Source: Xenococcaceae cyanobacterium MO_188.B32 (GTDB lineage Bacteria > Cyanobacteriota > Cyanobacteriia > Cyanobacteriales > Xenococcaceae). Taken from it: DNA of 45,552 bases. The notes beneath the pieces were generated by a model. That model was not told where the DNA came from, searched no databases, and saw only the letters and a list, made by a program, of their open reading frames with translations. Made by a program: the position numbers and the translations under genes. Within the stretch, counting starts at the first letter, position 1, and each line of letters opens with the position of its first letter. The stretch covers positions 1-45,552 of the forward strand of contig JASJDJ010000016.1 of assembly GCA_030065635.1 (NCBI GenBank). Reading direction: 5' to 3'. Shown one piece after another: positions 12,680-18,031 of the stretch.

Positions 12680-12940
12680 TTAGACCTCTTGCAAAAATAA
12701 ATAAGAAATCAACATGGTGGTTGGACATGGCGAATGCAATTCGCCGTCCCCTTGTGCGCTGCTTCTACCAGTAGCACTGACAATACCGGTAGTCACAGTA
12801 TTATCTAAGCCCAAAGGATTACCAATAGCGATCGCCCATTCTCCAGGCTGTAGCTGTTCGGAATCAGCAAAAGTAACGGTTGGTAAATCTTCGCTGTCGA
12901 TTTTAATTACAGCGACATCGGTTAAGGGGTCTGTTCCCAT
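12680..12940 (-). pseudogene. HtrA/Deg serine protease fragment
   Basis: About 60 residues match the middle of a trypsin-like HtrA protease: [12 protein letters not shown], which carries the catalytic Asp region, and [30 protein letters not shown]. The N-terminal part with the catalytic His and everything from the GNSGGP serine motif onward are missing. Homology stops abruptly at a palindromic repeat (12723-12749), after which the frame reads unrelated sequence. The fragment is not functional. Confidence 0.85.
12723..12749. repeat. Compact palindromic repeat
   Basis: GGCGAAT and ATTCGCC form a perfect 7-bp stem around a GCA loop (12729-12745). GGAC/GTCC extends it outside a two-base bulge. 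It sits exactly where HtrA homology ends, so it may mark the insertion or recombination that destroyed the gene. Confidence 0.65.
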
Positions 12941-12983
12941 TACTTCCCCCTCATTCGACGTGAGGTGAGAATAGCCTCATCGA

Positions 12984-13256
12984 ATAATTGAACCCGATCA
13001 CCGAACGAGGATATCGAGTAATAGCCATTGAACCTTCTTCTACCATGCGAGGCCAGGCGATCGATCGTCCTGATGTGCGTTGGTTGAGTGCCAAGGCCTT
13101 TTCCCGGAAAGAATATACCACCTTTCATAGATGGATCTAGTTACGCAGCATTAGTTTTACCTTTTAAAAGGTGGTATATTCTTTCTTGGAAATCACCCAA
13201 AGCTGAAAAAATTCCTCTGCCAGATAATTCGGTAGATAGTGCAATAATTGTTTTAA
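12984..13256 (+). pseudogene. Class I SAM-dependent methyltransferase fragment, split by a MITE-like insertion
   Basis: On the plus strand the first piece (about 12990-13099) reads ERGYRVIAIEPSSTMR and continues to VRWLSAKA, the strand 2 region and following loop of a class I methyltransferase. After a 93-bp insertion the second piece (about 13195-13250) reads KAEKIPLPDNSVDSAIIVL, the motif around strand 4. The KA codons appear on both sides, consistent with an approximately 8-bp, now diverged, target duplication. The N-terminal glycine-rich SAM loop is degraded (in-frame stops before 12984) and the C-terminal part is absent. It is not functional. Confidence 0.75.
13100..13192. mobile_element. 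93-bp MITE-like element inside the methyltransferase fragment
   Basis: The left terminus 13100-13125 and the right terminus 13167-13192 are inverted repeats of 26 bp with two mismatches. The inner 19 bp, GAAAGAATATACCACCTTT, are perfect. The central 41 bp are unrelated and code for nothing. The flanks CCAAGGCC and CCAAAGCT look like a diverged target duplication. Small size, long terminal repeats and disruption of a gene fit a non-autonomous miniature transposable element. Confidence 0.75.
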
Positions 13257-15537: not shown

Positions 15538-16938
15538 ATGAAAGTACTTTTTTCTGCTAAATTTTCTCTCTTCTTAACAATTCTTGCCCTGCCTCAGTTT
15601 TTCACCTCTACTGCGGACTCTATCTTATGTTCTCCTAGTTTGGCTGCGGAAGTAAGAGAACTGGGCGAACAGGGACAACGAGGTCAACCGGGAACCAATG
15701 GTCAAAAAGGAAAAAATAGTGATAATCTGACGGTTTTTGCCGATGGTACCCCAATGACTCTCGATCTTTCTGGAGACAATGGTCTACCTGGAGGTGATGG
15801 CAGTATTGGGAATCCAGCAATTTGTAGCGATCGCGAAGCAGATGCCGATTATAATATCCGTCAGGCTAATGGAGGTAATGGGGGCGATGGTGGCGATGGT
15901 GGCGATGGTGGAAACGGGGGTTCTCTAACTGTCTATACCACCGATAAAAGTCACCTAGCACAAATCTACGTTATCGCCACTGGAGGAGAAGGAGGAGAAC
16001 CAGGACAAGGAGGAGAAGGAGGGGAAGGCTGTAAATGTGCTTCTTCTTACTGGAATCAACAGAGTTGTACGGGTAAACCAGGTCGTGATAACTATAACTG
16101 TACGACAGAAGAATTTCAGTGTCAAGATGGCTACAATGGCAGAAAAGGAAGAAGTGGCAGAAAAGGAAAACAAGGACGGTTAGGAACTTTAACCTTAATT
16201 AACTTAGATAAATCTCTGACACCAGATCGACCAATAGCTACGGTGGCACTCTCCCAACTCAAAGATAGAGGGTTTACTTTATCTAAAAATGAATGGGAAA
16301 CCAAAACAGGAGCAGCTTCTTTATTTGCACCAGGTTCGCTAATTGCCGATCGATATCAAGAATTAGTTAATCGTTTAGAAAGTACTGTTCTTTTAGTTTG
16401 GGATGCACCGCAATCATTTAGTAACTTTGCCCAAGAGCAAATTACCCTGAAGTTAACTGAAGATGAAGAAGTTGATTTTTCTATTCCTGACGATCTGTGG
16501 TTAGAAACCACCACTCTCAAACGAGATGATGTTACAGAATTTTTTGTCTTTAATGCTTTAAAAGAAAAGGAGGCTACCCAACTCAAAAGCCAGGGTTTAT
16601 CGGGTAATGGTTCTAATTTGACCCTAACACTTCAAGATATGGCTGGTAAATCCGATTTGGTCTTAACCGATTTTTCGATTAGATACCGTACTAGCAAGTC
16701 AGATGAAGCACAATTTCGTCGTGTATTCGACTACAAAACCAAATATGAAGGGGACATCCCTCCAGAAGCGATCGAATATCAGAATAATCAATTTACTATT
16801 AACATAGGTCAATTACCTATCCCCCCCGAAGTTCTAGAAAGAGGAACCGCCGTAGAAATAAAAATTGTTGCTAATCGTTCTTTTGCTGGAAACTCCAAAC
16901 AGCAAGACATTATCGTCCGTGATATTCTCAAGCGATAA
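15538..16938 (+). CDS. Secreted collagen-like glycine-rich protein
   Basis: A 466-residue protein with a Sec signal peptide (hydrophobic segment about 8-24, likely cut near SLAAE at 34-37). Residues about 40-230 are low-complexity Gly-rich: short collagen-like GXY runs (GEQGQRGQPGTNGQKG; GRKGRSGRKGKQGRLG) alternate with Gly-Asp and Gly-Glu blocks (GGNGGDGGDGGDGGNGG; GGEGGEPGQGGEGGEG). A Cys cluster (CKC, CTGK, NCTTEEFQCQDG) interrupts them and could form disulfides. The C-terminal half (about 235-466) is non-repetitive, beta-rich and probably folded. I do not recognise a named domain there. It is probably a surface or matrix protein. It ends 59 bp before dndE on the same strand, so the two could share a transcript. 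Confidence 0.75.
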   Translation: MKVLFSAKFSLFLTILALPQFFTSTADSILCSPSLAAEVRELGEQGQRGQPGTNGQKGKNSDNLTVFADGTPMTLDLSGDNGLPGGDGSIGNPAICSDREADADYNIRQANGGNGGDGGDGGDGGNGGSLTVYTTDKSHLAQIYVIATGGEGGEPGQGGEGGEGCKCASSYWNQQSCTGKPGRDNYNCTTEEFQCQDGYNGRKGRSGRKGKQGRLGTLTLINLDKSLTPDRPIATVALSQLKDRGFTLSKNEWETKTGAASLFAPGSLIADRYQELVNRLESTVLLVWDAPQSFSNFAQEQITLKLTEDEEVDFSIPDDLWLETTTLKRDDVTEFFVFNALKEKEATQLKSQGLSGNGSNLTLTLQDMAGKSDLVLTDFSIRYRTSKSDEAQFRRVFDYKTKYEGDIPPEAIEYQNNQFTINIGQLPIPPEVLERGTAVEIKIVANRSFAGNSKQQDIIVRDILKR

Positions 16939-16997
16939 TTTGAATTAATGATGATTGGTGAAACTAACGACTAACAACTAACAACTAACTACTAATC
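16939..16997. repeat. Short tandem repeat between the collagen-like gene and dndE
   Basis: Repeats of an AACTAAC-type unit (CTAACAACTAACAACTAACTACTAA) lie immediately before the dndE ATG, where a ribosome-binding site would be expected. No good Shine-Dalgarno is visible. Confidence 0.55.
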
Positions 16998-17384
16998 ATG
17001 GAAACACCAATCGAACGTATTCGTCTATCCCAAACAGCTAAGGAACAACTAATTAAATTAAAACGTATTACTAAAATCGAGCAATGGAATATCTTATGTA
17101 GATGGGCATTTTGTTATTCTCTAGCTCAAGCGGATACACCTTCTCCTGAATCAATTCCTGCTGACAGTAATGTCGAAATGACTTGGAATGTTTTTGGTGG
17201 AGAAATAGCAGATATTTTACTAATTGCTCTAAAACAAAAATGTCTTCAAGAACAATTAGATACCAACAAAGAAACCCTCAGACAACAATTTCGCTTGCAT
17301 CTTCATCGTGGTATTGGCTATTTAGCTGGAGACGATAATTTAAAAAATATAGAAAATTTAGCTAGTACCGCGTTGTGGAAGTAA
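16998..17384 (+). CDS. dndE: DndE-like DNA phosphorothioation (sulfur modification) protein
   Basis: A 128-residue protein with the layout of DndE: an N-terminal helical basic part (IRLSQTAKEQLIKLKR, EQWNILCRWAFCYSLA), the central EMTWNVFGGE, and the C-terminal RLHLHRGIGYLAG. In the Dnd system DndE is a small tetrameric protein that binds nicked DNA and is needed with DndA/IscS, DndC and DndD to put sulfur into the DNA backbone. Lys residues in the first helix pair fit the DNA-binding surface. None of dndB, dndC or dndD is in this window; the neighbours are a collagen-like gene and a DUF2062 gene. The gene is either a detached member of a dnd set elsewhere in the genome or a stand-alone relic. 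Family assignment from sequence pattern by eye. Confidence 0.8.
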   Translation: METPIERIRLSQTAKEQLIKLKRITKIEQWNILCRWAFCYSLAQADTPSPESIPADSNVEMTWNVFGGEIADILLIALKQKCLQEQLDTNKETLRQQFRLHLHRGIGYLAGDDNLKNIENLASTALWK

Positions 17385-17491
17385 TAAGTAATAAGTAATA
17401 AATATGGATTTATAAATTTTTCGATTATTTTAACTGGTAAGTTTATTTATACCTACGTCTGCTAGTCTAATAGTTAGATGAAAAGATACTT

Positions 17492-18031
17492 TTACTCTGT
17501 ATTTTTATTTCTCGAGCTCAATAAATAAAGGCTAGCAAAATAAGTGATTAAACCAGCTACTAAACCAACAACAAAGCAGCCAAAGATTAAAGTAATAGCG
17601 ACAGTAGAACCTAGTTCTTTAAACTGAGAAATAGATTGAAAATCTAACTGACTAATCGACTTACTTTCTACTCCCAGTAAAAATTTACCCACTTTATAGT
17701 TAAAAATGTAAATAGGTAAATAAGTTAAAGGATTACTAATCCAAGTACCTGCTACCGCTGCAACTTTACTTCCACGAAATAAAGTTGCTAATAATACGCC
17801 AACAAAGCTTTGTAAGCCAAAAAAAGGAAAGCACCCTGCGAAAACTCCTACGGCTAAACCCCTGGATAGTACTATGGGTTTTCCTCGTAAGCTGGGAATA
17901 CGTAAGCGTAAAAAACGACTGCACTTTTTAAACCAAGATCGATCGCGCTTATATTTTTTTTGACTATTTATTTTTGGGGCTACAAGGCGGTTCGATCTGC
18001 ACGAATTACCCTTGTAATAATCTTTACTCAT
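17492..18031 (-). CDS. DUF2062 membrane protein
   Basis: A 179-residue protein with a basic N-terminus (about 1-55) followed by the DUF2062 signature: RGLAVGVFAGCFPFFGLQSF, a second hydrophobic segment beginning VLLATLFRGSKVAAVAGTWI, and SNPLTYLPIYIFNYKVGKFLLG. A last membrane helix lies at about 145-172. Probably three membrane segments in the inner or thylakoid membrane. The family's biochemical function is unknown. Starts at ATG 18031, divergent from mnmE across 113 bp. Confidence 0.9.
   Translation of the reverse strand: MSKDYYKGNSCRSNRLVAPKINSQKKYKRDRSWFKKCSRFLRLRIPSLRGKPIVLSRGLAVGVFAGCFPFFGLQSFVGVLLATLFRGSKVAAVAGTWISNPLTYLPIYIFNYKVGKFLLGVESKSISQLDFQSISQFKELGSTVAITLIFGCFVVGLVAGLITYFASLYLLSSRNKNTE

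What the first reader, a model, noticed from the sequence alone, without database searches (positions are those of the whole stretch)
16998..17384. Solitary dndE with no other phosphorothioation genes nearby
DndE acts with DndC and DndD, which are normally neighbours. Here it sits alone after a collagen-like gene. Either the dnd set is scattered in this genome, or DndE has a separate DNA-binding role, or it is left over after loss of the system.
Basis: partly seen in the sequence, partly recalled or inferred. Interest (0 to 1): 0.55.

Follow-up and report, generated by a model that had tools for sequence, protein, structure and literature searches.

The report
Lone DndE outliving lost phosphorothioation genes
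A cyanobacterium and its one sampled sister species both keep an intact gene for DndE, a DNA-binding part of a DNA-sulfur-marking machine, although the machine's core enzymes cannot be found in either draft genome, so DndE may have a use of its own.

Summary
ORF 16998-17384 is a genuine DndE (Pfam 150.6 bits, cut-off 25; TIGR03184 equivalog 130.8, cut-off 71.85; model resembles DndE crystal structures) and the only dndE found in its genome. Scattering: in Cyanobacteriales dndE is often far from dndD (more than 10 kb apart in 20 of 68 genomes with both on one contig). Loss: dndC and dndD are not found in the window genome or in the only other genome held of its genus, which keeps the same MltA/collagen-like/dndE/DUF2062/mnmE order. 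Two sites that border dndC/dndD in relatives are present in both genomes without them. DndE is intact in both, under relaxed but still purifying selection (dN/dS 0.19 over residues 1-121, 0.27 full length; median of 36 disjoint cyanobacterial pairs 0.047). A PbeC/CxC-type ATPase co-occurs with dndE across the order and is the best candidate partner left; this is unproven, and in the window genome its gene is split by a frameshift. [quoted passage not shown] The collagen-like neighbour looks incidental. Main caveat: both genomes are drafts.

The parts
16998..17384 (+). dndE, 128 aa, intact; two ribbon-helix-helix DNA-binding units expected (fold named after PMC10853773)
   Evidence: structure model
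15538..16938 (+). collagen-like (Gly-rich) ORF, upstream neighbour; hydrophobic N-terminus suggests export (my reading, no call); adjacency seen otherwise only in sister genome L003/G129
   Evidence: (weak NF038329 match, 17 bits against a cut-off of 325)
17492..18031 (-). DUF2062 protein, convergent downstream neighbour; adjacency conserved in L003 and L002
18145..19521 (+). mnmE (tRNA modification GTPase); adjacency conserved in L003 and L002
16962..16995 (.). heptamer tandem repeat (AACTAAC x4.9) between the collagen-like gene and the dndE start codon
17379..17401 (.). heptamer tandem repeat (AAGTAAT x3.3) over and after the dndE stop codon

Best explanation
The gene is a true DndE, of clade-1 type by its loop lengths. 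Shown: in this family (Xenococcaceae by the titles of L003 and L081) dndE lies apart from dndC/dndD where this could be seen; in the window's genus dndC and dndD are not found in either held genome, while dndE stays intact beside mnmE. Inferred: dndE moved away from the dnd cluster first, the cluster was then lost from its island, and dndE survived because it was not on that island. Inferred: the protein still binds DNA, with a preference for nicks, through the basic face of its first unit, and is kept under weakened selection; the PbeC/CxC-type ABC ATPase encoded elsewhere is its likeliest remaining partner. Phosphorothioation by the Dnd route is most likely absent in this organism, because no DndC was found.
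For: Identity. No DndC. No DndD: 36 of 36 candidates scored in G000; 30 of 40 scored. The sister genome G129 (the genome of L003) shows the same absences and the same dndE context. Empty sites: in G103 the dnd genes follow tig-clpP-clpX-hydrolase, in G130 clpX-hydrolase, and in G130 proB is the other border. In G000 the same run is followed by an unrelated ORF and pdxJ; in G129 by other genes including a DNA methylase and a HerA-type helicase; the proB loci are dnd-free too. Selection: window-G129 dN/dS 0.194 over residues 1-121 is the highest of 36 disjoint pairs with dS 0.3-0.8 measured the same way; 0.274 over the full gene. Amino-acid change within the genus is over-represented in DndE against MnmE (Fisher p=0.016, on counts that I estimated and rounded by hand). 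Neutral substitution without a stop is unlikely (about 0.03 per lineage). Of 45 columns conserved at >=95% elsewhere the window keeps 42. Comparison for decay: G134 has no DndC or DndD match and only a 43-residue DndE stub.
Against: Both genomes are drafts (281 and 380 contigs; 97% and 90% complete), and islands with repeats are where drafts break; G019 has dndD cut at a contig end and no dndC, a likely gap of exactly this kind. dnd genes also sit in other neighbourhoods (G128, G046), so an empty site at two places does not exclude a third. The contigs of G000 and G129 end about 3 and 5 kb past the hydrolase. Relaxed selection can equally be read as slow decay. The DndE tree supports the window-G129 pair only modestly (92/76) and joins it weakly (85/54) to G086/G103, not to G130 with which it shares the mnmE position.
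Confidence: 0.68

Rival explanations
1. Assembly gap: dndC and dndD exist in the genome, on an island that both draft assemblies missed, and the system is complete but scattered as in many relatives.
For: Most of the order sample has all three genes (94 of 120); within the family only 4 of 24 genomes with a long-type DndE lack any DndC match: the two of this genus, one probable gap (G019) and one genome 82% complete (G139).
Against: Two separately assembled species lack both genes, and two known bordering sites are dnd-free; DndE of this pair has about four times the median dN/dS of the other pairs, which an intact system does not predict.
Confidence: 0.2
2. Pure remnant: dndE has no function in this genus and is decaying; it looks intact only because the loss is recent or happened separately in the two species.
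For: Raised dN/dS. The window differs from the consensus most in the linker (7 of 15), the loop 85-90 (4 of 6) and the C-terminus (4 of 11), though also in helix 66-84 (6 of 19). The stub in G134 shows where decay leads. The PbeC-like gene is frame-broken in G000.
Against: dN/dS well below 1 and no stop or frameshift in either species; under neutrality since their split the chance of no stop is about 0.001 for both (0.033 squared, substitutions only).
Confidence: 0.3
3. Misannotated ribbon-helix-helix protein of another family.
For: Such proteins are common (recalled); the structure model has only moderate confidence (pLDDT 69) and shows no strands where they are expected.
Against: Equivalog-level TIGR03184 score, full-length PF08870 match, 68-80% identity to the 80 DndE loci kept, best structural match 7X4E DndE at Z 9.9, then 6.9 and 6.2 for the other two DndE entries, next entry 2.1.
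Confidence: 0.01

Closest known systems
Dnd phosphorothioation modification module (DndACDE with DndB)
   Same: The protein is a bona fide DndE; relatives in the same family carry DndC and DndD.
   Different: No DndC or DndD detected in this genus; dndE stands beside mnmE, not in a dnd operon.
DndD/CxC-DndE 'obligate pair' of Krishnan et al. 2024 (PMC10853773, passages read)
   Same: Loop and C-terminal helix lengths of the model fit their clade-1 DndE; a PbeC-like ATPase with a CIC motif is encoded in the genome.
   Different: dndE is linked neither to dndD nor to the PbeC-like gene; dndD is not found; the paper calls the linkage universal and explains missing members by poor assemblies.
Disordered cyanobacterial dnd sets of Jian et al. 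2021 (PMC8569181, passages and one section read; author name recalled)
   Same: They report enrichment of single dnd genes in Nostocales, incomplete clusters and disordered operons in cyanobacteria.
   Different: The passages read do not single out a genus that keeps dndE after losing dndC/dndD, nor test selection or the empty sites; supplements were not available to me.

Membership tests
DndE family | Full-length profile match above curated cut-offs | tested here: met
   PF08870 150.6 vs 25; TIGR03184 130.8 vs 71.85
DndE family | Fold of the solved DndE structures | tested here: met
   VIA-align: 7X4E Z 9.9 (96 aligned, rmsd 4.2), 5WTU 6.9, 4LRV 6.2, next entry 2.1; Foldseek ranks the same entries first but with E 0.07 and worse. 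Helices 12-24, 28-43, 69-84, 91-110 parallel four of the five reported for 7X4E. Caveats: pLDDT 69, no strands in the model.
DndE family | Basic nicked-DNA-binding face of the first helix | tested here: met
   By the phmmer alignment K20, K22, R23, K26 sit at B7A positions 18, 20, 21, 24; B7A K17 is I19 here. K20, R23, K26 are invariant in 29 of 29 rows. Residues only; binding was not tested.
DndE clade 1 (partner of DndD) | Short H1a-H2a loop (3-5), H1b-H2b loop about 7, short C-terminal helix about 10 | tested here: met
   Model gives 3, 6 and 8 residues, criteria from PMC10853773; no tree against named clades was made
DndD-DndE linked dyad | dndD adjacent to dndE | tested here: not met
   No dndD in the genome over cut-off; none in the window ORF list
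Complete PT modification system | DndC sulfurtransferase present | tested here: not met
   No match in G000 or G129; drafts, so absence is of the assemblies
Complete PT modification system | DndB | tested here: inconclusive
   A DndB-like protein query rang in 0 of 12 genomes, a set without a known positive
Complete PT modification system | DndA or IscS; DndFGH | not tested
PbeC/CxC ATPase system with its own clade-2 DndE | CxC ATPase linked to a DndE | tested here: not met
   The ATPase (PDLC02753 904.7 bits in G129) has no DndE among its neighbours on the 4.4-kb loci L184/L187; neighbours are an ORF with a below-cut-off CyRepA1 match and a DEP-domain gene; the only DndE of G000 is on another contig

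The most novel reading that the evidence does not exclude
In Cyanobacteriales the single dispersed DndE serves two ABC ATPases, DndD for phosphorothioation and the PbeC/CxC-type ATPase for something independent of it, so DndE outlives dndC/dndD where the PbeC-like ATPase is kept: a phosphorothioate-free DndE-ATPase DNA-surveillance complex encoded by unlinked chromosomal genes.
Probability: 0.22. Interest if true: 0.72.

Novelty: new variant of a known kind. Interest (0 to 1): 0.46.

Why it matters
What DndE does is still disputed (nicked-DNA binder, nickase, or target-scanning subunit; PMC9239217, PMC4182426, PMC10853773, passages read). A lineage that keeps DndE without DndC and DndD is a natural experiment that separates a DndE role from phosphorothioation. 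The order-wide scatter also corrects the published rule that dndD and dndE are always linked, so detectors that rely on operons may miss or misjudge cyanobacterial systems.

Tried and rejected
A DndB-like protein from L111 as query rang in none of 12 genomes, but the set held no genome known to match, so the empty answer shows nothing. The 135-aa ORF next to DndC in G103 and G130 was suspected to be a second DndE; Pfam gave nothing for either and PADLOC only a 15-bit match to another family for one, so this is dropped. Co-retention of DndE and the PbeC-like ATPase in genomes without DndC and DndD: Fisher p=0.097 in the order sample (with ATPase: 2 with and 2 without DndE; without ATPase: 1 and 14), and 0.008 after adding four family genomes G129, G139, G124, G134. 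Against it: G096 and G066 (71% complete) keep the ATPase without DndE, and G070 (77% complete) keeps DndE without it. Promoter scan: 1 site, fewer than in shuffles (mean 4.0); two overlapping terminator-like hits on the minus strand inside the collagen-like gene; neither informative. Rfam at gathering scores: 0 matches in the window. The background dN/dS genomes were not each checked for DndC/DndD, and one of the 36 disjoint pairs is of second-type DndEs (L160, L162). The three highest of 503 pairs all involve the window, two of them near dS 0.8. Within the genus a DEP gene (0.264) and the PbeC-like gene (0.165 and 0.191) are also fast, so DndE is unusual for a DndE rather than for this genome. 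Rows dropped: of 142 hit loci those under 110 aligned residues, identical copies and L001 were left out (125 rows kept); one search used 40 rows and left out five second-type DndE loci. In one search the weak DndC fragments (G022, G027, G105) and second-type or PbeC-like DndD matches were left out of the table.

Full report
WHAT IT IS. The ORF at 16998-17384 (+, 128 aa) is a genuine DndE: PF08870 150.6 bits, the TIGR03184 equivalog at 130.8 against a cut-off of 71.85, and 68-80% identity to the 80 loci kept (of 230 relatives found). A model from 29 aligned sequences (pLDDT 69, no strands resolved) finds DndE structures first: 7X4E at Z 9.9, 5WTU 6.9, 4LRV 6.2, with the next entry at 2.1; Foldseek gives the same order with weak E-values (0.07 and worse). 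Loop and helix lengths fit the clade-1 description of PMC10853773 (passages read). Positions equivalent to E. coli B7A K18, K20, G21 and G24 are K20, K22, R23 and K26 by the alignment, while B7A K17 is I19. K20, R23 and K26 are invariant in 29 of 29 rows. Published work reports that basic residues put at G21/G24 (B7A) or at G26 (N. bangense) strengthen DNA binding (PMC9239217, passages read), so this protein should bind nicked DNA well; that is inference. Against over-reading: lysine mutants lowered but did not abolish phosphorothioation in vivo (PMC4182426, passages read).

IS IT ALONE. The window genome G000 (6.39 Mb, 281 contigs, 97% complete) has one DndE, no DndC match and no DndD over cut-off. 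Its four matches to the DndD model are two adjoining pieces on contig C41, which belong to another gene (below), and two weak ones of 37.1 and 19.7 bits.

SCATTER IS COMMON IN THE ORDER. In a sample of 120 genomes of the order, DndE is found in 101, DndC over cut-off in 96 and DndD over cut-off in 99. My table places all three in 94; it counts two fragments just below cut-off (DndC of G108, DndD of G050) and leaves out weaker ones. Of these 94, 39 have C-D and D-E each within 10 kb, 21 have at least one of the two distances above 10 kb on one contig, and 34 are split over contigs and cannot be judged. Of 68 genomes with D and E on one contig, 20 have them more than 10 kb apart, from 15 kb to 3.97 Mb in linear coordinates. 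[quoted passage not shown] DndE with neither C nor D occurs in 3 of 101, G000, G063 and G070, and with D but no C in 4 (G019, G027, G050, G105). G070 is 77% complete, and in G063 dndE lies on a 3-kb contig.

LOSS IN THIS GENUS. In the family (27 genomes) a long-type DndE is found in 24, DndC over cut-off in 18 and DndD over cut-off in 20. The genus has two held genomes, G000 and G129. G129 is the genome of L003 (Xenococcaceae MAG MO_188.B29; same 26,564-base contig). Both lack DndC and DndD, and both keep DndE in the order MltA, collagen-like gene, dndE, DUF2062, mnmE. L002 (Pleurocapsales LEGE 06147, genome G130) shares dndE-DUF2062-mnmE and has DndC and DndD on another contig. Elsewhere in the family DndE tends to go with the system: G068 and G124 have none of the three over cut-off, and G134 has no DndC or DndD match and only a 43-residue DndE stub.

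EMPTY SITES. In G103 and G130 the dnd genes follow clpX and an alpha/beta hydrolase gene (in G103 with two small ORFs between); G086 shares flanks with G103. In G130 the island holds PbeA-like, PbeC-like, a 135-aa ORF, DndC and DndD, with proB at the far border. I located the hydrolase and proB in seven genomes and read flanks. In G000 the run rnj/dapA/asd/tig/clpP/clpX/hydrolase is unbroken and continues into an unrelated ORF and pdxJ (Pfam). In G129 the same run continues into other genes, among them a DNA methylase and a HerA-type helicase. The stretches read around proB in both (18.4 and 14.1 kb) are dnd-free. The names tig, clpP, clpX, asd, dapA, rnj and proB are read from the sequences, not from a profile call. 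The contigs end about 3 kb (G000) and 5 kb (G129) past the hydrolase, and G128 and G046 have their dnd genes in other neighbourhoods, so this shows absence at two known places only.

SELECTION. Between the two species DndE has dN/dS 0.274 (full gene) or 0.194 (residues 1-121). Measured over residues 1-121, this is the highest of 36 disjoint cyanobacterial pairs with dS 0.3-0.8 (median 0.047); the median of all 503 such pairs, which are not independent, is 0.066. Nonsynonymous change within the genus is over-represented against mnmE (p=0.016, counts estimated by hand). Yet the ratio is far below 1, 42 of 45 highly conserved columns are kept (44 of 45 in G129), and residues never seen elsewhere lie in the linker, at R81 and at D85. 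A neutral simulation gives about 0.033 per lineage for no stop. Relaxed but purifying selection is the plainest reading. Other genes of this pair range from 0.040 (clpX) to 0.264 (DEP gene).

A POSSIBLE PARTNER. An ATPase of about 690-700 aa that scores roughly 120-190 bits to the DndD model is in fact PbeC-like (PDLC02753 904.7 bits in G129), with a CIC motif like the published CxC hook (the likeness is my reading). At E <= 1e-60 it is found in 100 of 120 genomes of the order, 96 of them with DndE; 15 have neither, 5 DndE only, 4 the ATPase only. G000 (split gene) and G100 (partial) are counted as present. It lies within 15 kb of C, D or E in 32 of 100, many of the rest being on other contigs. 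It is intact in G129 and split by one frameshift in G000; the two pieces score 589.6 and 320.7 bits with a small overlap, together about a whole gene, so a recent break or a sequencing error. Co-retention with DndE after loss of C and D is only suggestive (p=0.097 in the sample, 0.008 with four added genomes; not corrected for kinship).

LITERATURE. Searches 'dndE cyanobacteria phosphorothioate', 'DndE nicked', 'orphan dndE dndC', 'phosphorothioation Nostoc dnd', 'CxC DndE ABC ATPase' and 'PbeABCD DndE' listed no paper whose title or abstract start describes an orphan DndE in cyanobacteria. I read passages of PMC8569181 (and one section), PMC10853773, PMC9239217, PMC4182426 and PMC3226654. The library holds open-licence papers only.

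VERDICT. The finding is real and more informative than it looked: scatter first, loss of dndC/dndD second, and an intact DndE left behind. A genuine orphan is likely (0.68); a function of its own is open.

Noticed in passing
G000 C41 (L187, L194), G129 C23 (L184); order sample: A PbeC/CxC-type ATPase is found in 100 of 120 Cyanobacteriales genomes, co-occurring with DndE but often not near any dnd gene and, at the two loci read, not beside any DndE; in G000 it is split by one frameshift.
   Followed up: partly
G105 contig C2, 2248456-2252098: DndC is a remnant with an internal stop (65 bits, profile 361-446) directly before DndD and DndE with open frames: a case of DndC decaying while the D-E pair stays.
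   Followed up: no
L227, L228, L112, L202: The place after the clpX-hydrolase genes looks like a defence hot spot: Pbe-like and dnd genes in G130 and dnd genes with similar companions in G103, a DNA methylase and a HerA-type helicase in G129.
   Followed up: partly
window 16962-16995 and 17379-17401: dndE is bracketed by short heptamer tandem repeats; the same units were not found around dndE in L003 or L002, which have other short repeats there.
   Followed up: partly
L159-L163 (G136, G138, G133, G131, G135): Five family genomes carry a second, divergent DndE (about 93-96 bits, open frames 190-225 aa) besides the long-type one.
   Followed up: no
window 12680-13128, minus strand: Two abutting short ORFs; the first matches a trypsin-like peptidase domain (47 bits), so this is probably a broken serine protease gene.
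   Followed up: no
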